64,000 bases of DNA from the NCBI RefSeq assembly GCF_000024925.1, contig NC_013521.1, forward strand, positions 1,488,001 through 1,552,000, in the 5' to 3' direction. Below are positions 41,592 through 50,549 of the stretch, in pieces. Made by a program: the position numbers and the translations under genes. Source of the DNA: Sanguibacter keddieii DSM 10542 (GTDB lineage Bacteria > Actinomycetota > Actinomycetes > Actinomycetales > Cellulomonadaceae). Every line of letters starts with the position of its first letter. Position 1 is the stretch's first letter. The notes under the pieces are model-generated. The model was not told the DNA's origin. It did no database searches and was given only the letters and a program-made list of their open reading frames with translations.

Positions 41592-43886
41592 TCAGTGCGT
41601 GAGCACCACGAGCCGCTCGGTGGCCCGCGTCATCGCGACGTACCGGTCGACCGCTCCCTCGACCCCGGACCCGAGGGCCTCCGGGTCGACGAGCACGACG
41701 AGGTCGAACTCGAGCCCCTTGGTGAGCTCGGGTGCGAGGGACCGCACGCGCGAGGTCCCGACGAACCCTGGGTCTCCGACGACGCAGGCCGTGCCGTCCG
41801 GGTGCTCGGCCAGCCACTCCTCGAGCACGGTCTCGAGCTCGTCGACAGACCCGTGCCGGACCTCGTGCCCCGACGTGGTGCGGACCGAGACCGGCACGTT
41901 CGCGTCCGGGATCGCCGCCCGGACGACGACCTCCGCCTCCGCCATGATCGCCGCGGGGGTGCGGTAGTTGTAGGTGAGCGGCGAGACCGTGACACCGGTG
42001 AGACCCACCCTGTCGAGCCGTTCCTGCCAGGTCTCCGTGAACCCGCCGCGAGCCTGGGCACGGTCTCCGACGACGGTGAGGCTGCGCGAGGGGCAGCGGC
42101 GCAGCACCATCTGCCACGCGGCATCGGTGAGCTCCTGCGCCTCGTCGACCACCACGTGCGCGAAGGGACCGACGAGGTGGTCGTGCGCGACGTCGTCGGG
42201 GTCGAAGGCACCGGCCAGGGCCTCGGCGAGGTCGCTGCTGCGGAGCATCACCACCTCGCTCTCGCGGTCGTCGTCGGCGGCGACGAGGTCGTCGATCACC
42301 TGCGAGCGGTACTCGAGCTCGGACGAGACGGTCGCCTCGTGGCGTGCGCGTCGGCGGGAGGCATCAGGGTCGCCGAGGCGGTGACGGGCCGCGTCGAGGA
42401 GCGGCAGGTCGGCGTCGGTCCAGGCGCTCTCGGCCGGACGTCGGAGCGCGGCGCGGTCCTCCGGGCTCGTCCACGGCGCGCAGTGCCGCAGGTACGCGGG
42501 GACCGCCCACAGGTCGGCGACGAGCTCCGCGGCGTCGAGGAGGGGCCACGCACGGTCGACCGCGGCGGTCAGACCGGCGTCGCGGCGCACCGCCGCGCGG
42601 AGGACGTCCGGCGAGACGTCGCCGCCCTCGTCGCCGCCGTACGCCCCGTCGTCCGCGAGCCCTGCACCGTCCTCCACCTCCGCACCGTCCTCGTACCTGT
42701 CGTCGCCCTGCTCGGCGAGCCGGTCCACGAGGATCGAGACGATCTCGTCCCGGATACCGTCGCGCGCCTCGTTGTGGGGGGTGCCGGGGTCGGGTGACCC
42801 TAAGGCCCGGGCCCAGTCGGCCGGGCTGAGCCAGAGGTCGGCCCAGGGCGTCTCGACGAGGAGCCCGTCGGCGGGAGGCTGCTCGTAGAAGCGCACCGCG
42901 GCCTCGACGGCCTCGACCATCGCCAGGTTCCCCTTGAGCCGCGCGACCGCGGGGTCGCGCTCGGGGACGGCCGCAGCCCCCTCGGGGACGAGGTCGGCGA
43001 GCGTGCAGGTCTGCACGCCGTCCTCGCCGAGGTCGGGCAGGACGTCGGCGACGTAGTCGAGGTAGGGCTGGTGCGGGCCCACGAACAGGACCCCGCCGCG
43101 GCGGTGGCCCAGGAGCGGGTCGGTGTAGAGCAGGTAGGCGCAGCGGTGCAGCGCGACCACCGTCTTCCCGGTCCCGGGACCGCCGTCGACCACGAGCGTC
43201 CCGCGCGACCCGGCGCGGATGATCGCGTCCTGGTCGCCCTGGATGGTGCCCAGGACGTCGCGCATGCGGTCGGTGCGGCTGCCGCCGAGGCTCGCGACGA
43301 AGGCCGACCGTGCGTCGGGGAGCGCGTCGCCGACACCACCGTCGCCCTCCCTGCCACCGTCGTCGTCCCCGTGGTCCTCTCGGTTGCTGGCGAGCGCGGC
43401 AGGGGTGAGCGGCTCGTCCCAGTAGTCGCGCACCCGGCCGAGGTGCCAGCGGTACCGGCGGCGGCTGGCCAGGCCCATCGGGTGCGCCGGGGTCGCGGCG
43501 AAGAAGGCCTCGGCGGCGGGGGAGCGCCAGTCGACGAGCAGCGGCTCGCCCGCTGCGTCGGTGAGGCCCTGCCGCCCGACGTAGACGTGCTCGGCGGTCG
43601 CGTCGTCGGCGACGGTCCGTCCGAGGCAGAGGTCCGGCCCGTGCCGGCGCAGACCACGCAGCCGGGCGACGAGGCGGTGGATCTCCGCGTCACGCTCCAC
43701 GGCGGTCTGGCCGTGTCCCGCGGGGGAGCGTCGCACGGTGGCGAGGCGTGCGGTGAGGTCGGTGACGGTCTGCTCGAGCGAGCCGCTCAGCTCGGTGAAC
43801 AGCTGCTCGTCGCGCTCGACGAGCGCGGGGTCGGCCTTCGCCGCCAGGTGCTCTGGCAGGTCGAAGACGCTGGTGGTGTGCTGCAC
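41592..43886 (-). CDS. helR: HelR-type RNA polymerase recycling ATPase (HelD family)
   Basis: The 764-residue SF1 helicase-like protein matches actinobacterial HelR from its start (SVFDLPEHLAAKADPAL..., RLRGLRRHGPDLCLGR, GLASRRRYRW). It has Walker A as GGPGTGKT (235-242), the DEAQELTD Walker B, and a UvrD-type C-terminal half (PLTYNYRTPAAIM). HelD/HelR proteins dislodge stalled or drug-bound RNA polymerase; HelR confers rifamycin tolerance in Streptomyces. Two acidic Gly/Asp inserts (about 170-187 and 395-430) are unusual. GTG has a GAGGAG ribosome site. An inverted repeat resembling the rifamycin-associated element lies 58 bp upstream. Called helR by resemblance. Confidence 0.88.
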   Translation of the reverse strand: MQHTTSVFDLPEHLAAKADPALVERDEQLFTELSGSLEQTVTDLTARLATVRRSPAGHGQTAVERDAEIHRLVARLRGLRRHGPDLCLGRTVADDATAEHVYVGRQGLTDAAGEPLLVDWRSPAAEAFFAATPAHPMGLASRRRYRWHLGRVRDYWDEPLTPAALASNREDHGDDDGGREGDGGVGDALPDARSAFVASLGGSRTDRMRDVLGTIQGDQDAIIRAGSRGTLVVDGGPGTGKTVVALHRCAYLLYTDPLLGHRRGGVLFVGPHQPYLDYVADVLPDLGEDGVQTCTLADLVPEGAAAVPERDPAVARLKGNLAMVEAVEAAVRFYEQPPADGLLVETPWADLWLSPADWARALGSPDPGTPHNEARDGIRDEIVSILVDRLAEQGDDRYEDGAEVEDGAGLADDGAYGGDEGGDVSPDVLRAAVRRDAGLTAAVDRAWPLLDAAELVADLWAVPAYLRHCAPWTSPEDRAALRRPAESAWTDADLPLLDAARHRLGDPDASRRRARHEATVSSELEYRSQVIDDLVAADDDRESEVVMLRSSDLAEALAGAFDPDDVAHDHLVGPFAHVVVDEAQELTDAAWQMVLRRCPSRSLTVVGDRAQARGGFTETWQERLDRVGLTGVTVSPLTYNYRTPAAIMAEAEVVVRAAIPDANVPVSVRTTSGHEVRHGSVDELETVLEEWLAEHPDGTACVVGDPGFVGTSRVRSLAPELTKGLEFDLVVLVDPEALGSGVEGAVDRYVAMTRATERLVVLTH

Positions 43887-43944
43887 GGTGCCGCTCCTCT
43901 GCCCGAGGTGTCGAGGGTCTCGGGCGACGATCCTCCACCGCAGA

Positions 43945-43966
43945 GGGGGCCTTGCGGCAAGCCCCC
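43945..43966. promoter_or_regulatory. Rifamycin-associated-element-like inverted repeat upstream of helR
   Basis: GGGGGC and GCCCCC flank a CTTGCGGCAA core, giving a 22-bp near-palindrome. It closely resembles, from memory, the ~19-bp rifamycin-associated element found before helR and rifamycin-inactivating genes. It lies 58 bp upstream of the helR start and between the histidine-kinase stop and helR, where a promoter is expected. Confidence 0.75.
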
Positions 43967-43973
43967 TGCTCCG

Positions 43974-45815
43974 CTATAAGTTGAGAGTGGAAGGACGCGG
44001 TGCGTCCGGCTCTTCCCCGGTCGTGCTGCCGGGGAACGTGGCGGTGAAGACCGTCCCCACACCCGGCTCGCTGGCAGCGGTCAGCGTCCCGCCGTGGAGC
44101 TCGACGAGCGTGCGGCTGATGGCCAGGCCCAGCCCCGAGCCTCCGGACCCCTTGGTCCGAGAGCGGTCTGCGCGCCAGAAGCGGTCGAACAGTCGCGAGA
44201 GGTCGTCGGCCGTCATCCCGATGCCGTCGTCGGCGACCTCGAGCACGACGGTCGTGCCGTCCAGCGCCGCCCGCAGGTCGATACGAGACCCTTCAGAGTG
44301 CTGGACCGCGTTGGCGACGAGGTTCTCGACGACCTGTCGCACGCGCCCGGGGTCCACCTCGGCGACCAGGGGCCCGGGTGCGTCGACCCGGACGTCGAGG
44401 GAGCGGGTGGCGGCTCTCTCGCCTGAGGCACGGCGTGCCTCGTGGAGCAGCGCGGCCACGTCCGTCGGCTCCCGGTGCACCTGGAGGTGACCGGAGTCCG
44501 CACGGCTCAGCGTCTGCAGGTCGGCGGTGATCTGCTGCAGGTGCATGGTCTCGCCGTGGAGCAGGTCGACGAGGTGCGCGTCGGTCGGGACCACGCCCTC
44601 CTGGGCACCCTCGAGCCAGCCGCGCAGCGTGGTCAGCGGGGTGCGGAGCTCGTGCGAGACGTCGGCGACCATCTGCTGCTGCTGCTCGCGGGTCCGGGCG
44701 AGCTCGGCCGCCATGGTGTTGAAGGCCCGGGCGAGGTCCGACACCTCGTCGCCGCCGCGCACCGGCACGACCACGGAGAGGTCACCGGCCGCGAGCTCGC
44801 GTGCCGCGCGCGTCACGGAGCGGACCCGGCGGACCGCCGGCACCCCCACGAGGCCCGCGGTGGCGAGCACGAGCGTCACGACCACCGCTGAGACGAGGGC
44901 GATGCGCGCCTGAGACCCGGGGCTGAGGTCGAGGGCGTTGCGCTGGTCCCCGCGCTCGTCCGTGAGGTACACCTCGACGGAGGGTGCGACCGACCCGGCC
45001 GAGGCCGTCGTGAAGGCGGCCGCGACGCACCTCAGCTCCTCTCCGGGAGCGGGCCGGCGGACCGGCTCGCCGCCGGTCTGGAGGCCCAGCACGATGCCGG
45101 CCGGGTCGGCTCGGACGGGGCGGAGCACCACACGGTCCACCGGCGGCAGCCCCGCGGTGATCAGGCAGGGGTTGGTCAGCTCGGTGATCTGGTCGAGGGC
45201 ACGCTGCTCAGGGCCGATCGGCTGCGCCAGCGCTGGTGCGCCGCAGCCGTCCGGCTGTGACGCGACGTCGAGCACGGCTCGGCCGGTGGGCCAGAACGCG
45301 ATCGAGGTCTCCAGGGTCAGCCCCAGGCACCCGACGACCGCCGACACCCTGCGCAGGCTCTCTGCGCGCTGCTCGTCGTCGAGCGTGAGCGCACCGCTGA
45401 GATGGTCGGGCAGAGGGGCGAGGTCCTCGCTCCCGGTCCCTGGGGAGTCGTCGGGTGCCAGGACCTGGTCGACGAGCTCCTGCCACGGGTCGACCTCCGT
45501 GCGGGCGTGGTCGGGGTAGGGGAACCCTGGGCGGGTGTCGACCACGGTGCGTCCTTGCTCGACGACCGCGATGCGGCGCCCGTGCTCGCGCGCGAGCCTG
45601 TGGACGACGGGACCGACGTCGTCCCAGGTCGCGTGCGACCCGCCCCAGTCGAGCAGCTCGTCGACGATCGCGACGTCCGCCTCGAGGTTGGTGCCTGCCT
45701 GCTCGATGCTGTAGCTGGGCTGGGTGGTGCGGGTGAGCCAGACGGTCCCGAGGACCGCGACGAGTGCGACCGCGACGACGGACAGGAGCAGCCGCGCGAC
45801 GAGGCTACGTCGCAT
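43974..45815 (-). CDS. Sensor histidine kinase
   Basis: A 613-residue membrane kinase with TM1 (about 7-28), a large extracytoplasmic sensor (about 30-310), TM2 (about 311-335), HAMP (with GDLSVVVPVRGGDEVSDLARAFN), HisKA (phospho-His in VSHELRTPLTTLRG) and HATPase (NLVANAVQH, DDGIGM, GGSGLGLAIS). The sensor has several Cys (VVGCLG, DGCGAP, NPCLI, LRCVA) that could form disulfides. It overlaps the response regulator by 11 bp. Its ligand is unknown; the divergent export cassette and the downstream helR suggest an antibiotic or envelope signal. Confidence 0.93.
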   Translation of the reverse strand: MRRSLVARLLLSVVAVALVAVLGTVWLTRTTQPSYSIEQAGTNLEADVAIVDELLDWGGSHATWDDVGPVVHRLAREHGRRIAVVEQGRTVVDTRPGFPYPDHARTEVDPWQELVDQVLAPDDSPGTGSEDLAPLPDHLSGALTLDDEQRAESLRRVSAVVGCLGLTLETSIAFWPTGRAVLDVASQPDGCGAPALAQPIGPEQRALDQITELTNPCLITAGLPPVDRVVLRPVRADPAGIVLGLQTGGEPVRRPAPGEELRCVAAAFTTASAGSVAPSVEVYLTDERGDQRNALDLSPGSQARIALVSAVVVTLVLATAGLVGVPAVRRVRSVTRAARELAAGDLSVVVPVRGGDEVSDLARAFNTMAAELARTREQQQQMVADVSHELRTPLTTLRGWLEGAQEGVVPTDAHLVDLLHGETMHLQQITADLQTLSRADSGHLQVHREPTDVAALLHEARRASGERAATRSLDVRVDAPGPLVAEVDPGRVRQVVENLVANAVQHSEGSRIDLRAALDGTTVVLEVADDGIGMTADDLSRLFDRFWRADRSRTKGSGGSGLGLAISRTLVELHGGTLTAASEPGVGTVFTATFPGSTTGEEPDAPRPSTLNL

Positions 45816-46512
45816 CGGTCCCGGGCTCTGTCGCGGTCGGGGCGACGAGCTTGTAGCCCACCCCGTAGACGGTGCGCAGGAGCTCGGGACCGTCGAACAC
45901 CGCGTCGACCTTGGACCGCAGGTTCTTCATGTGGGTGTCGATGGTGCGCTCGGTCGTGTACTCGTCGGAGCCGTGCAGGTGCCGCAGGAGCTGCGGTCGG
46001 CTGAGCACCAGCCCGGCGTGCTCCGCCAGGAGGGTCAAGAGCTGCATCTCGGCACGGGTGAGGTCGATCGGGGTGCCGCCGACGGACGCCTCGTGCCGCC
46101 GGGGGTCCACCACGAGCGGGCCGACCGTGACGGGTCCGTCGTCGACGGTGCGGCTGCGCCGGAGCAGGGCCCGGGCCCTGGCCACCATCTCGCGGGGGGA
46201 GTAGGGCTTCGAGAGGTAGTCGTCGGCGCCGAGCTCGAGCCCCACGAGCAGGTCGTCCTCCTCGGAGCGGGCGGTGAGCATGAGGATGGGTGTCTCGTCG
46301 CCCGCGGCGCGCAGTGCACGGCACACCGCGAAGCCGTCCATCTCCGGCAGCATGACGTCGAGGACCAGCAGGTCGACCGCCGAGCCGCGGACTGCCTCGA
46401 GGGCGGAGCGACCGTCGCCGACGACCGTCGCCTGGTAGCCCTCACGGGTCAGGTACCGTCGCGCGAGCTCGGCCTGGAGCTCGTCGTCCTCTGCGATCAG
46501 GATCGTCGTCAC
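45805..46512 (-). CDS. OmpR/PhoB-family response regulator
   Basis: A 235-residue two-domain regulator. The receiver (1-120) has the acidic pocket AEDDE, phospho-Asp in LLVLDVMLPEMDG and KPYSPREM. The winged-helix effector (about 135-230) has LTRAEMQLLTLLAEHAGLVLSRPQLLRHL and RTIDTHMKNLRSKVD. GTG at 46512 follows TAGGAT by 6 nt. It is the first gene of the RR-HK unit and probably controls the divergent lipoprotein/ABC genes; no direct-repeat operator was securely identified. Confidence 0.95.
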   Translation of the reverse strand: MTTILIAEDDELQAELARRYLTREGYQATVVGDGRSALEAVRGSAVDLLVLDVMLPEMDGFAVCRALRAAGDETPILMLTARSEEDDLLVGLELGADDYLSKPYSPREMVARARALLRRSRTVDDGPVTVGPLVVDPRRHEASVGGTPIDLTRAEMQLLTLLAEHAGLVLSRPQLLRHLHGSDEYTTERTIDTHMKNLRSKVDAVFDGPELLRTVYGVGYKLVAPTATEPGTDAT

Positions 46513-46524: not shown

Positions 46525-46610
46525 GGGGCGCGAGGACGCGGGGAGAGCGCGTGGGTGGGTGGCTCACGAGGACCTCAAGGGCACCGGACAGGTTCCTCAC
46601 AATCGCTGGC

Positions 46611-46616
46611 TAGCGT
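46611..46616 (+). promoter_or_regulatory. -10 box (TAGCGT) of the lipoprotein/ABC operon
   Basis: TAGCGT 42 nt before the lipoprotein ATG, in the 146-bp divergent gap. This start has a normal leader with a GGAG ribosome site. Confidence 0.45.
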
Positions 46617-46658
46617 CTCGTCGCGCACCTCCCAGCACCCCTGAACCCTGGAGCGACC

Positions 46659-47336
46659 ATGCACCTCCACCACCGCACCGCCCAGGCGAGGGCAGCCGCC
46701 CCGCTGCTCGCCCTCGTCGTCGCCCTCAGCGCCTGCTCGGGCGCCCAGAGCGCCCCGCCCGAGACCGGCTCGGGCGAGATCGCGAGCATCCCGACCACCG
46801 AGGCGCCCGCCGCGCCCGGGCCTGCCGACCCGACGCAGGGCGGGCCGCCCGCCGACGCCGCCGACGCTGCTGGCGACGACCTGTTCGCCACCTACGGCGA
46901 GCCGGTGCGGCTGCGGCTCGACATGACCGAGGAGGAGGAGATCGAGGCGCAGGCCGGGTACGACCGCTGCACCATGGACCACTCGGGCATCCCCGCGGGC
47001 GCGGGGTCCGACGCCGGGGGCACCGAGGGAGGTACCGGTCCGGCCTCGCCCGAGCAGGCTGCGGCCGACAGGGAGGCGACCGAGCACTGCGCCTCGCTCC
47101 TCCCGCTCGCGCCGTGGGAGTACGACCCTCAGAACCCGGACGCGCTGAACTTCGTGCAGGCGGTCGTCGACTGCCTGCACGACCGCGGGGTCACCTACGT
47201 CGAGGTCGTCCAGGACGACGGGAGGATCGGTGTCGCGCTCGGTGGTCCGTCGAACGACTCGCGGTCGATCAGCCTCGGCATGGAGCTCCACGACCAGTGC
47301 GAGACGAGCGTCGTCGACGCTGGTTCGTGGCAGTGA
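46659..47336 (+). CDS. Putative lipoprotein of the export cassette
   Basis: A 225-residue secreted protein with a signal peptide ending in the lipobox LSAC (mature Cys about residue 28). A Pro/Thr/Ala linker and a small domain with four further Cys (YDRC, TEHC, VVDC, DQC) follow, consistent with disulfides. No family recognised. It is the first gene of a four-gene unit and overlaps the adaptor gene by 4 bp (GTGA). The divergent kinase also has a Cys-containing sensor, so the lipoprotein may feed the sensor or the transporter; this is inference. Confidence 0.82.
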   Translation: MHLHHRTAQARAAAPLLALVVALSACSGAQSAPPETGSGEIASIPTTEAPAAPGPADPTQGGPPADAADAAGDDLFATYGEPVRLRLDMTEEEEIEAQAGYDRCTMDHSGIPAGAGSDAGGTEGGTGPASPEQAAADREATEHCASLLPLAPWEYDPQNPDALNFVQAVVDCLHDRGVTYVEVVQDDGRIGVALGGPSNDSRSISLGMELHDQCETSVVDAGSWQ

Positions 47337-48661
47337 GAGGGCCACGTGCTGGCCGGCGCACGACGGTGGTCGCCGGTGTCGTCGCGGCCTCGCTCGTCGG
47401 GGTAGGTGTCCTGGTGACGACCGCCTGGCCGAGCGGGACCCCTGACGGGGGAGCGAGCCCGTCCGCGGTCGGTCGACCGGTACGGGAGACGGTCGAGGTC
47501 GCTCGTGAGGACCTCGTCGTCACCCAGGAGGCCCAGGGGATGGTGGAGTTCTCCGGCTCCCGCGAGATCACGGCCTCCCGGGCGGGCACCATCACCTGGC
47601 TGCCCGACGTGGGCACCGTGCTGACCCGCGGGGACACCGTGCTCCGGACGGACGACCAGCCGGTCGTGCTGTTCCTGGGGGAGACCCCGCTCTACCGGAC
47701 CCTGGACGGCTCCGGGCTGCGCGGGCCCGACGTGGACGTGGTCGCGCAGAACCTCGTGGCACTCGGGCACCTCGCCGCCTTCCCGCCCGGCGACGTCACC
47801 GGACCGCGGTTCGCGGCAGCCGTCAGCCGGTGGCGCACGGCGAACGGCCTCCGGCCCGTCGAGCTCGTCCCGCCGGACGGTCCGGGGACGCCGGACCCGC
47901 AGAGCGGTCAGGGCGCGGGACGTGCGGCAGCGGGTGCCGGTGCCTCGGCCGAGGCACCGGCCGACGCACCTGACGGTGAAGGGGCCGAGGTCCCGGTCTC
48001 GCCTGACGACGACCCGCAGGCGCCTCAGGCGTCACCCGACGGGGTACCAGACGAGCCGCCGGCACCGGCGGACGGCAGCGCCCCTCCGGCACCGGCCGCC
48101 GAGACCCCACCCGCGCCGATCACGAGCGTCACCTCGATCCAGACCGGCGAGGCCGTCGTGCTCCCCGAGGACGTGCGGGTCTCGGCGGTCCTCTCGCAGC
48201 TCGGCGACCCCGCCGAGGGGGCTGCGGTGCTGCGCGTCACGAGCACCCGGAAGGTCGTCCGGCTCTCGGCAGACCAGGTCCCCGAGGCCGCCGTCCAGCA
48301 GGGCGGCGAGGTGACCGTCGTGCTGCCCGGCGGCGCCGAGGTCCCCGGGACCGTCGCGGAGGTGGGCACGAGCGGTGAGGCCGGCGACGCCTCGGCCACC
48401 GTGGTCGTCGAGGTCGCCGACCAGGAGGCGTTGTCCGGGGTGGACGGGGGGCCGGTCACGGTGCGCATCGTCACCGCGCGCCGCGACCAGGTGCTCGCCG
48501 TGCCGCCGGCCGCGCTGCTCGCGCTGCGCGAGGGCGGTCACGCGCTCCAGCTCGAGGACGGCACCCTCGTGCCGGTCGAGACCGGCATGTTCACCGACGC
48601 GCGGGTCGAGGTCTCGGGTGATGCCGTGCACGAGGGACTCAGGGTGGTGACCGCCTCGTGA
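47333..48661 (+). CDS. Membrane-fusion/adaptor-type protein with peptidoglycan-binding-like insert
   Basis: A 442-residue protein with an N-terminal membrane anchor (about 10-30) and a beta-barrel/lipoyl-type start (VEVAREDLVVTQEAQGMVEFSGSREI). A peptidoglycan-binding-1-like insert (GPDVDVVAQNLVALGHL...AVSRWRTANGL, about 125-170) precedes a long Pro/Ala/Asp-rich linker (about 180-260). The C-terminal HlyD/MacA-like beta domain includes GVDGGPVTVRIVTARRDQVLAVPPAALLAL. Such adaptors pair with MacB-like ABC transporters in actinobacteria. GTG at 47333 is set by the GTGA overlap with the lipoprotein gene. Confidence 0.85.
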   Translation: MRGPRAGRRTTVVAGVVAASLVGVGVLVTTAWPSGTPDGGASPSAVGRPVRETVEVAREDLVVTQEAQGMVEFSGSREITASRAGTITWLPDVGTVLTRGDTVLRTDDQPVVLFLGETPLYRTLDGSGLRGPDVDVVAQNLVALGHLAAFPPGDVTGPRFAAAVSRWRTANGLRPVELVPPDGPGTPDPQSGQGAGRAAAGAGASAEAPADAPDGEGAEVPVSPDDDPQAPQASPDGVPDEPPAPADGSAPPAPAAETPPAPITSVTSIQTGEAVVLPEDVRVSAVLSQLGDPAEGAAVLRVTSTRKVVRLSADQVPEAAVQQGGEVTVVLPGGAEVPGTVAEVGTSGEAGDASATVVVEVADQEALSGVDGGPVTVRIVTARRDQVLAVPPAALLALREGGHALQLEDGTLVPVETGMFTDARVEVSGDAVHEGLRVVTAS

Positions 48662-49374
48662 GCATCCTCGAGCTCGAGGACGTGACCAAGACCTTCGGCC
48701 CCGACGTGGTGGCGCTCGACTCGGTGTCGCTCCGGGTAGAGCGCGGCGAGCTCTTCACGATCGTCGGGCGGTCCGGCTCGGGCAAGTCCACCCTGATGAA
48801 CGTCATGGGCACGCTCGACACACCGACCTCCGGCACCGTCCGCGTCGACGGCCAGGACACCAGCGGGCTGACAGACCGGGAGACCACCGAGCTGCGGGCG
48901 CGGTCGATCGGCTTCGTGTTCCAGAGCTTCCACCTCGACGACGGCCAGACCGCCACCGGCAACGTCATGACGGGACTGCTCTACGCGGGCGTGCCACGAC
49001 GTCAGCGCCGAGCGCTCGCGACCGAGGCGCTCGAGCGTGTCGGGCTCGCTCACCGGGTCGGGCACCGTCCGCCCCAGCTCTCGGGCGGTGAGCGGCAACG
49101 GGTCGCGATCGCGCGGGCCATCGTCAAGGAGCCCGCGATCGTCCTCGCCGACGAGCCCACCGGTGCCCTCGACAGCCGTAACGGCGACCTCGTCATGGCC
49201 GTGCTCGAGCGACTCAGCGCGGAGGGCACCACGATCGCCGTGATCACCCACGACCTCACGGTCGCCGCACGGTCGGCGCGGCGGGTCGAGCTGCACGACG
49301 GCGTGGTCGTCGACGACGGTGCGCCTGCCGACGCCGGTGCACGCGTCCAGCACGCCACCGGAGGTGGACGATGA
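48658..49374 (+). CDS. ABC transporter ATP-binding protein (MacB/LolD type)
   Basis: A 238-residue ATPase: Walker A GRSGSGKST, Q-loop VFQSF, signature LSGGERQR, Walker B IVLADEPTGALD and the H-loop ITHD. The sequence is that of type VII (MacB/LolD/FtsE) ABC systems, which act from the inner membrane on extracytoplasmic substrates. It is coupled at both ends by 4-bp overlaps to the adaptor and permease. Confidence 0.94.
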   Translation: MSILELEDVTKTFGPDVVALDSVSLRVERGELFTIVGRSGSGKSTLMNVMGTLDTPTSGTVRVDGQDTSGLTDRETTELRARSIGFVFQSFHLDDGQTATGNVMTGLLYAGVPRRQRRALATEALERVGLAHRVGHRPPQLSGGERQRVAIARAIVKEPAIVLADEPTGALDSRNGDLVMAVLERLSAEGTTIAVITHDLTVAARSARRVELHDGVVVDDGAPADAGARVQHATGGGR

Positions 49375-50549
49375 GCCGCACGGGACTGTCGCTGGTCGAC
49401 ACCCTTGTGGTCGGGACCGTCGGGCTCCGCGCGCGGCGCCTGAGGTCCGTGCTGGCTGCCCTGGGCATCTCGATCGGCATCGCCACGGTCGTCCTCGTCA
49501 CGAGCATCCCGGCCTCGTCGCAGGCGGACCTCGACCGTCGTCTGTCGGCGCTCGGGGCAGACCTCCTGCGGGTCGACCCCGTCCAGACCGGGGGAGAGGT
49601 CCGCACGCTGCCGCGCGAGAGCCAGGCCATGCTCGAGCGGGTCGGACCGGTCACCGGGGCGGCGGTGGTCGCCAACACGCACGCCTCGGTCCGCAGCAGC
49701 GCGCTGCGCCCGCAGGGTGACGGAGCCATCACGGCGCTCGCCGTGAGCGGGACTCTCGACGAGATGCTGCGGCTGAGGGTCGCCGACGGGCGCACGCTCA
49801 CCGGGGACGTCGAGCCGACCGTCGTGCTCGGGTCTGACGCAGCCGAGCGCCTGGGCCTCGACCGTCTGCCGTCGGACCCGGTGACGATCGACGTCGGCGG
49901 GGTCGCGTTCACCGTGGTCGGCGTCCTCGCGCCGAGCCCGCTGGCGGTCGACCTCCAGTCGGCCGTCCTCATGGACTGGGCGGACGCCGAGACCTGGCTC
50001 GACCCGGACGTCCGCCCGACCGTCGCCTACGTCACGGCGCCTGACGAGGTCATCGGTGAGCTCCGTCCCGTCCTGGCCTCGACGCTCTCTGCCGAGTCGC
50101 CGGGGCGGGTGCTCGTCAGCCGTCCGTCAGACGTCGTCGCGGCGAGGCAGGCGACCGGCGCGACCTTCGAAGGCATGTTCGTCGGGCTTGCGGCTGTCGC
50201 CCTGCTGGTCGGCGGCGTCGGGATCGCGAACACGCTCTTCGCCTCCGTGCTGGAGCGCCGCCGCGAGATCGGGCTGCGTCGGGCGCTCGGTGCTCAGCGC
50301 TCGGCGATCCGTACGCAGTTCATGACCGAGGCGCTCTGCCTGTGCCTGGCCGGCGGTGCGCTCGGCAGCGCTGGCGGGGCGTTCGCGACGGTGCTCTGGG
50401 CGACGTCGCGCGGGTGGCCGGTCGTGGTCCCGCTGGACGTCGTCTGCGCCGGGGTCGCCGCCGCGCTGGTCACGGGAGCCCTCGCGGGGATAGCCCCCTC
50501 GGTCCGGGCCGCGCGGCTCCCACCCACCCTCGCGCTCTCGGCCGAGTAG
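49371..50549 (+). CDS. ABC transporter permease (FtsX/MacB type)
   Basis: A 392-residue permease with one N-terminal membrane helix (about 20-45, in LRARRLRSVLAALGISIGIATVVLV). A MacB-like periplasmic domain (about 50-260) and three C-terminal helices (about 265-385) with ERRREIGLRRALGAQRSAIRTQFMTEALCL, the FtsX-domain signature, follow. With the adaptor and ATPase it makes a complete MacAB-like exporter, probably for peptides or antibiotics. ATG overlaps the ATPase stop. Confidence 0.93.
   Translation: MSRTGLSLVDTLVVGTVGLRARRLRSVLAALGISIGIATVVLVTSIPASSQADLDRRLSALGADLLRVDPVQTGGEVRTLPRESQAMLERVGPVTGAAVVANTHASVRSSALRPQGDGAITALAVSGTLDEMLRLRVADGRTLTGDVEPTVVLGSDAAERLGLDRLPSDPVTIDVGGVAFTVVGVLAPSPLAVDLQSAVLMDWADAETWLDPDVRPTVAYVTAPDEVIGELRPVLASTLSAESPGRVLVSRPSDVVAARQATGATFEGMFVGLAAVALLVGGVGIANTLFASVLERRREIGLRRALGAQRSAIRTQFMTEALCLCLAGGALGSAGGAFATVLWATSRGWPVVVPLDVVCAGVAAALVTGALAGIAPSVRAARLPPTLALSAE

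What the first reader, a model, noticed from the sequence alone, without database searches (positions are those of the whole stretch)
43886..43976. helR preceded by a rifamycin-associated-element-like operator
The sequence shows a 22-bp near-palindrome (GGGGGC + CTTGCGGCAA + GCCCCC) 58 bp before a gene that matches HelR along its length. In other actinobacteria HelR frees RNA polymerase from rifamycin, and the 19-bp element marks rifamycin-inducible genes. Together they predict drug-inducible RNA-polymerase rescue here. The element also lies 8 bp from the stop of a histidine kinase gene, so helR may have both read-through and its own induced transcription, linking it to the two-component system.
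Basis: partly seen in the sequence, partly recalled or inferred. Interest (0 to 1): 0.8.

Follow-up and report, generated by a model that had tools for sequence, protein, structure and literature searches.

The report
Rifamycin switch before helR gene
A bacterium carries the known rifamycin-response DNA signal in front of a gene whose product frees RNA polymerase from the drug, and comparison with relatives suggests that the signal is the shared core of two back-to-back promoters, which makes its unknown mechanism directly testable.

Summary
Window 43945-43966 holds an exact match to the rifamycin-associated element (RAE), 58 bp before a gene over NCBI's HelR cut-off (1089.7 bits; cut-off 750). 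It is the genome's only RAE within 3 mismatches. Induction by rifamycin is likely but untested. The link to the histidine kinase is not a general feature: its ortholog is in 2 of 6 Sanguibacter genomes.

New here: in 114 exact RAEs before helR, rox, rgt, arr and rph, plus 32 helR loci oriented from protein hits, the RAE lies between two -10 boxes at mirror-image distances: sense xAnnnT in 146 of 146, antisense TAnnnT in 141 of 146, each 19 bp from a TTGCNG in the palindrome. From the predicted antisense start, 46 of 113 modules begin with an intrinsic terminator (shuffles: mean 3.8). So the RAE reads as the overlapping -35 core of a divergent promoter pair: a strong-class antisense promoter, often terminated within about 35 nt, and a weak-class sense promoter for resistance. 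The papers seen describe two sense promoters and an unknown factor. What senses the drug stays open; competition for one polymerase pool alone cannot give induction. The antisense promoter is predicted, not observed.

The parts
41592..43886 (-). helR, RNA polymerase recycling motor ATPase, GTG start
   Evidence: NF041254 1089.7 bits, cut-off 750; aligned over 56-762 with solved M. smegmatis HelD, E 6.6e-93
43945..43966 (-). rifamycin-associated element (RAE) with its flanking G and C
   Evidence: 0 mismatches on the helR strand, only site in the genome at up to 3 mismatches
43955..43960 (-). predicted -35 of the sense promoter, TTGCCG
   Evidence: position read; TTG kept in 32 of 32 protein-found helR loci
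43930..43935 (-). predicted -10 of the sense promoter, GAGGAT, 19-bp spacer; start predicted near 43923
   Evidence: xAnnnT at this offset in 146 of 146 modules
43952..43957 (+). predicted -35 of the antisense promoter, TTGCGG
   Evidence: position read; CAA (its complement) kept in 32 of 32
43977..43982 (+). predicted -10 of the antisense promoter, TAAGTT, 19-bp spacer; start predicted at 43989
   Evidence: TAnnnT at the mirrored offset in 141 of 146 modules
43989..44033 (+). predicted first 45 nt of the antisense RNA; two hairpins, no T-tract, not more stable than shuffles
   Evidence: -20.2 kcal/mol, z -0.58; fails the terminator test
43974..45815 (-). histidine kinase gene; its last codons and stop lie in the antisense -10 block; not part of the conserved unit
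   Evidence: HisKA, HATPase_c, HAMP; last codons AAC TTA TAG, its only TTA; ortholog in 2 of 6 genomes
45805..46512 (-). response regulator gene of the kinase; not part of the conserved unit
   Evidence: Response_reg and Trans_reg_C

Best explanation
The locus is a rifamycin-response unit: a RAE in front of helR, whose product frees RNA polymerase from rifamycin (function known in relatives, inferred here). Supported by comparison: the RAE is the centre of a mirror-symmetric divergent promoter pair. Its two TTGCNG halves serve as overlapping -35 elements; 19 bp to one side lies a weak-class sense -10 (usually CAnnnT, here GAGGAT) facing helR, 19 bp to the other side a strong-class antisense -10 (TAnnnT, here TAAGTT) whose RNA is often terminated at once. 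Polymerase cannot sit on both. Inferred: without drug, polymerase mostly engages the antisense promoter and the sense promoter stays low; rifamycin stress shifts use to the sense promoter, most likely through an unidentified dimeric regulator that reads the whole 19-bp palindrome, including the GGG and CCC arms that -35 elements do not explain. The adjoining kinase is not part of this unit. I put the anatomy at about 0.75 and the regulator step at about 0.5.
For: HelR over the cut-off; exact single RAE. Sense box 146 of 146, antisense box 141 of 146 at the exact mirrored place, 3 of the 5 misses one base off; one module per genus label: 40 and 38 of 40. The six best-conserved flanking columns are -10 positions. 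Predicted antisense start G in 38 of 40 labels, preceded by T in 30. Terminator from that start in 46 of 113, shuffles mean 3.8, maximum 7 in 30 runs. A skeleton without the arms retrieves RAEs: 28 of 30 fetched loci. In 3 of 5 Microbacterium loci a divergent gene begins 24-62 nt after the predicted antisense start. In M. smegmatis, TAnnnT promoters have more abundant transcripts than VAnnnT ones (PMC6448022, passages).
Against: No transcript was observed. PMC10719064 (section 9) reports two sense starts at M. smegmatis helD, one about 20 bp upstream of the RAE. AnnnT reads the same on both strands (PMC10268837, passages), so the upstream box could also fire toward the gene, and a possible sense start (A at -5, 86 of 116) exists. 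The terminator is a majority feature only in Streptomyces (33 of 50; others 13 of 63), is in 9 of 32 family helR loci and is missing in the window. Its start is not sharp: reading 3 bases off still gives 43 or 35. A terminator would also stop antisense RNA begun further right. A regulator is only inferred, and two modules (L291, L292) have a TAnnnT sense box.
Confidence: 0.6

Rival explanations
1. Published reading: two sense promoters, the RAE overlapping the -35 of the downstream one, and an unknown rifamycin-responsive factor at the palindrome. The conserved upstream block is then the -10 of a sense promoter or part of the operator.
For: PMC10719064 section 9 and PMC12802891 passages. A(-17) and T(-13) can be read as a sense CAAnnT box with a possible start at -5.
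Against: A(-12) in 111 of 116 fits T-12 of the antisense box, while the sense reading has C at -12 in 100 of 116; no conserved -35 lies 17-19 bp upstream of the sense reading (columns -40 to -35 at most 0.16 bits). The terminator faces away from the gene.
Confidence: 0.25
2. Convergent alarm as in B. subtilis: a sense start left of the RAE and an antisense start right of it collide in the RAE, and rifamycin relieves the collision.
For: Both AnnnT boxes could be read this way; the B. subtilis system is shown for helD and pps (PMC12802891, abstract and sections 48 and 49). A terminator further left would also end such an antisense RNA.
Against: The outward -35 positions are not conserved, whereas TTG and CAA in the RAE are kept in 32 of 32; the downstream box read antisense has G at -12 mostly (C at 36 in 79 of 116).
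Confidence: 0.08
3. Regulator-free orientation switch: the two promoters compete for polymerase and rifamycin alone tips the balance.
For: Mutually exclusive geometry; E. coli bidirectional promoters can interfere when one direction is strongly activated (PMC12825309, abstract and passages).
Against: For exclusive promoters on one polymerase pool the drug cannot raise sense output; 200,000 random parameter sets stay below 1. It would need a drug-refractory holoenzyme for the sense promoter. The arms would stay unexplained.
Confidence: 0.1
4. The histidine kinase and response regulator control helR by read-through or binding, linking it to their own signal.
For: Same strand, 7 bp between the kinase stop and the palindrome; no terminator-like site in 43600-44300.
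Against: Kinase ortholog in 2 of 6 Sanguibacter genomes; L008, the third Sanguibacter locus with HelR, has RAE and helR but no kinase match.
Confidence: 0.05

Closest known systems
RAE-controlled helR of Streptomyces venezuelae and Mycobacterium abscessus (PMC10719064, sections 8 and 9; PMC8655204, passages)
   Same: HelR-group gene with a RAE shortly upstream; sense -35 overlapping the RAE.
   Different: Here a divergent antisense promoter is proposed; those papers describe two sense promoters and an unknown factor. Induction was not measured here.
Convergent dual-promoter rifampicin alarm of Bacillus subtilis helD and pps (PMC12802891, abstract, sections 37, 48, 49 and passages)
   Same: A helD-type gene behind a weak sense promoter paired with a stronger antisense one; 19-bp spacers are noted for its antisense promoters.
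   Different: Those promoters face each other and do not overlap; here they face apart and share their -35 region, so collision cannot be the mechanism.
E. coli-type bidirectional promoters (PMC12825309, abstract and passages; PMC10268837, passages)
   Same: A symmetric sequence lets polymerase bind in two exclusive orientations.
   Different: There the -10 is shared and starts lie 7-25 bp apart; here the -35 is shared and predicted starts lie about 66 bp apart.
MerR-type promoters with 19-bp spacers (soxS, PMC12825309, passages)
   Same: Suboptimal 19-bp spacing.
   Different: There the operator sits between -35 and -10; here the palindrome is centred on the -35 elements.

Membership tests
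HelR (class II HelD, NF041254) | Score over NCBI's cut-off across the model | tested here: met
   1089.7 bits, cut-off 750, model 1-706 of 706
HelR (class II HelD, NF041254) | Acidic tip of the primary-channel loop (Glu-Asp in M. abscessus and M. smegmatis) | tested here: inconclusive
   Window has DDDRESEVVM; Streptomyces relatives DDDGEGAVTM; mycobacterial type DDEDH. Acidic, but not the same pair.
HelR (class II HelD, NF041254) | Releases rifamycin from polymerase; loss raises susceptibility | not testable with these tools
   needs a removal strain and biochemistry
Rifamycin-associated element | 19-bp palindrome GGGNCTTGCNGCAAGNCCC | tested here: met
   all 16 fixed letters
Rifamycin-associated element | Lies before a rifamycin-resistance gene, overlapping the -35 of its promoter | tested here: met
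   before helR; predicted -35 and -10 at 19 bp; the promoter is predicted, not mapped
Rifamycin-associated element | Required for induction by rifamycin | not testable with these tools
   no expression data for this strain
Convergent dual-promoter rifampicin alarm | Two promoters facing each other upstream of the gene | tested here: not met
   conserved boxes with usable -35 elements face apart; prediction from sequence only
E. coli-type bidirectional promoter | Shared -10, starts 7-25 bp apart | tested here: not met
   predicted starts about 43989 and 43923, shared -35 region

The most novel reading that the evidence does not exclude
The rifamycin switch of actinobacteria is a polymerase-orientation switch. 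The RAE is not merely an operator but the shared -35 core of a divergent promoter pair. The antisense promoter, often a dead end terminated within about 35 nt, holds polymerase away from a deliberately weak sense promoter, and the drug, through a second ingredient (a RAE-binding regulator or a drug-refractory holoenzyme), flips the orientation toward the resistance gene.
Probability: 0.35. Interest if true: 0.85.

Novelty: new variant of a known kind. Interest (0 to 1): 0.6.

Why it matters
The papers read here call the RAE mechanism and its regulator unresolved (PMC12802891, PMC10719064). The reading given here says where to look: an antisense start about 24 bp upstream of RAEs and a short terminated RNA in many Streptomyces, both of which existing start-site and small-RNA data could confirm or exclude. 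It would also explain why the element is a palindrome and why the deletion of half of it, which took away the sense -35, could not decide between activator and core promoter. For the window it means probable inducible target protection resting on a single RAE. The locus alone is a new member of a known kind; the divergent-promoter reading is what would make it a new variant.

Tried and rejected
Kinase-helR link as a conserved feature: rejected. TATAGC just upstream of the RAE as a sense -10: rejected in favour of the antisense TAnnnT, because A(-17), T(-13) and A(-12) are the columns that stay. A regulator-free competition sensor: rejected by algebra and simulation (one pool, steady state, no other factor). 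The RAE as an RNA hairpin switch: it folds well (-15.4 kcal/mol, z -2.0), but neither predicted transcript contains it, so not pursued. Phage carriage: 3 viral contigs hold a 19-mer match, and no reading of them has both flanking boxes, so taken as chance. Divergent pairs of resistance genes: two modules that read both ways were fetched (L291, L292); the Rgt match lies on one side only and none of the five reference proteins matched on the other. No search for the regulator itself was made.

Rows dropped or turned: of 119 exact RAEs, 3 lacked flanks for and 5 for (box counts); one more module lacked length. L150 and L152 were turned to face their gene. Of five antisense misses, L143, L027 and L030 have TAnnnT one base off; L165 and L173 do not. 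The two sets (114 and 32) may share species. The 32 helR loci are the 30 loci returned, which are the best scorers, plus L002 and L009. The 79 of 150 genomes include chance hits at 2 mismatches. Of 7 further HelR loci, 5 have a RAE within 400 bp and 2 (L205, L208) further up. Of 13 arr loci looked at, 2 have a RAE; of 12 other HelD-like loci, none reached 12 of 16 letters within 400 bp. The Rgt representative is below its NCBIfam cut-off (518.7 of 800). My notes and the label count the template at 15 letters; it has 16.

Literature: searches (listings). Seen in parts: PMC12802891 (abstract, sections 37, 48, 49, passages), PMC10719064 (sections 8, 9, passages), PMC12825309 (abstract, passages), and passages of PMC8655204, PMC7882622, PMC10194278, PMC3035225, PMC6448022, PMC11464796, PMC10268837; a word search in PMC13246000 gave nothing. 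No paper was read whole, and no bioRxiv text is held, so absence from print is claimed only for these searches.
Full report
WHAT IS THERE. The window lies in a single-contig genome of 4,253,413 bases. That length equals the published chromosome of Sanguibacter keddieii ST-74 (PMC3035225, passages), and a contig of G003 in the same genus has the length of a named S. inulinus contig, so the organism is almost surely S. keddieii. ORF 41592-43886(-) is HelR: 1089.7 bits to NF041254 against a cut-off of 750; it aligns over 56-762 with solved M. smegmatis HelD. The genome has two further HelD-like genes below the cut-off. The palindrome at 43945-43966 is a RAE with no mismatch on the helR strand, the only one at up to 3 mismatches in the genome. 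The 58-bp gap to helR holds; the gap to the kinase stop is 7 bp.

HOW COMMON. HelR over the cut-off occurs in 3 of 6 Sanguibacter genomes, 63 of 150 genomes of the family sample and 8 of 198 of the phylum sample. RAE-like sites at up to 2 mismatches occur in 79 of 150 family genomes (chance hits included). All 32 helR loci that I oriented have a RAE with at least 14 of 16 letters before the gene. By similarity to one protein of each class, the downstream genes are helR 55, rox 22, rgt 15, arr 9 and rph 7, with 11 cut off or unclear. The class proteins for helR, rox, arr and rph pass their NCBIfam cut-offs; the rgt one hits its family below the cut-off.

THE NEW ANATOMY. Number the 20-mer 0-19 in the sense direction, centre 9. 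In 116 modules with full flanks the six best-conserved flanking columns are A at -17 (115), T at -13 (115), A at -12 (111), A at 31 (116), A at 33 (111) and T at 35 (116). A31 and T35 are A-11 and T-7 of a sense -10 whose -35 is TTGCNG at 5-10, 19 bp away. T-13, A-12 and A-17 are A-11, T-12 and T-7 of an antisense -10 whose -35 is the other TTGCNG, also 19 bp away. On both sides A-11 and T-7 lie 22 and 26 bp from the centre. Turned to their genes, 114 modules give sense xAnnnT 114 and antisense TAnnnT 111; the 32 helR loci give 32 and 30. One module per genus label gives 40 and 38 of 40. The first letter of the sense box is C in 130, G in 10 and A in 6 of 146, never T, though two other modules, L291 and L292, do have T there. 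In M. smegmatis TAnnnT promoters have more abundant transcripts than VAnnnT ones (PMC6448022, passages), which puts the antisense promoter in the strong class and the sense one in the weak class.

A SECOND SIGN OF ANTISENSE INITIATION. The predicted antisense start is G in 38 of 40 genus labels, after T in 30. Read from there (hairpin start +1 to +4), 46 of 113 modules have a hairpin and T-tract, an intrinsic terminator (shuffled mean 3.8, maximum 7 in 30 runs; 0 when the sense strand is read from +42). The place is not sharp: shifts of 3 bases give 43 and 35, of 5 bases 33 and 20, of 10 or more at most 5. With the start free, 54 of 113 have one; its 5' end is at the predicted start in 20 and 1-4 bases before it in 21. 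Two examples fold at z -3.8 and -3.5. Terminators occur in 33 of 50 Streptomyces modules and 13 of 63 others, and in 9 of 32 family helR loci. The window has none, and its antisense RNA folds no better than shuffles (z -0.58). In 3 of 5 Microbacterium loci a divergent gene starts 24-62 nt after the predicted start; in the two tested it is an NADPH-dependent FMN reductase.

INDEPENDENT RETRIEVAL. A skeleton of 11 fixed letters without the GGG and CCC arms was searched in 296 genomes of the class: 161 have a match, against about 0.02-0.04 expected in a high-GC genome and about 2 in a small low-GC one; small genomes of one family (f81) do give hits with no RAE, as do their controls. Of 30 loci fetched, 28 are RAEs with at least 14 of 16 letters, and 27 have HelR (23), Rph (2), Rox (1) or Rgt (1) in the flank. 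So boxes and arms travel together. Three viral 19-mer matches, taken as chance, do not have both boxes.

MECHANISM. Overlapping -35 elements let polymerase use only one promoter at a time. Competition of this kind is known at E. coli promoters that share a -10, when one direction is strongly activated (PMC12825309, abstract and passages). But for exclusive promoters on one pool, poisoning a fraction r of polymerase changes sense output by (1-r)(1+X)/(1+(1-r)X+rY), which is never above 1; 200,000 random parameter sets agree. Induction needs something more. The arms are nearly invariant in the 32 helR loci (29-32 per letter) and not explained by -35 elements, so I favour a dimeric regulator acting on the promoter pair; that step is inferred. 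The published deletion of half the RAE also removed the sense -35, as the review says (PMC10719064, section 9), so it does not decide. The same review gives a sense start about 20 bp upstream of the RAE in M. smegmatis; my predicted start is 24 bp upstream on the other strand. Since AnnnT reads alike on both strands, both could be true.

THE KINASE. Its ortholog is in the window genome and in G003 (86% identity), 2 of 6 genomes; the next matches are at 38% or less. Its last codons are AAC TTA TAG, its only TTA: the antisense -10 block supplies the end of the gene. The pair faces an operon with ABC and MacB/FtsX-like proteins. I see no reason to tie it to rifamycin.

VERDICT. As a locus this is a new member of a known kind. 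The divergent-promoter reading of the RAE, if borne out, is a new variant and makes an open question testable, in part with data that may already exist.

Noticed in passing
L205 (G277) and L293 (G389): RAE, rgt and helR stand in a row on one strand, so one RAE may drive two resistance genes.
   Followed up: partly
L102, L119, L167 (Microbacterium): A divergent gene starts 24-62 nt after the predicted antisense start; NADPH-dependent FMN reductase in the two tested.
   Followed up: partly
L162 (Arthrobacter) 1-1250: An intact-looking RAE module stands before what looks like a decayed monooxygenase remnant; by eye, no family hit was run.
   Followed up: no
L270 (G498): A RAE with both boxes but no match to the five known resistance proteins in its flank; the downstream gene is unidentified.
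   Followed up: no
plasmid collection: 38 plasmid records match the RAE module query, 29 of them Streptomyces by name.
   Followed up: no
window 46559-50549: ABC ATPase and MacB/FtsX-like permease genes face the response regulator and kinase genes; a likely target of that pair.
   Followed up: no
G000:C1:2554977-2557136 and 2675221-2677017: Two further HelD-like genes below the HelR cut-off; the genome's only RAE-like site is the one before helR.
   Followed up: no
L150 and L152: The asymmetric 20-mer lies on the other strand relative to the gene, yet the two boxes still face the usual way, so the boxes rather than the outer letters set direction.
   Followed up: yes
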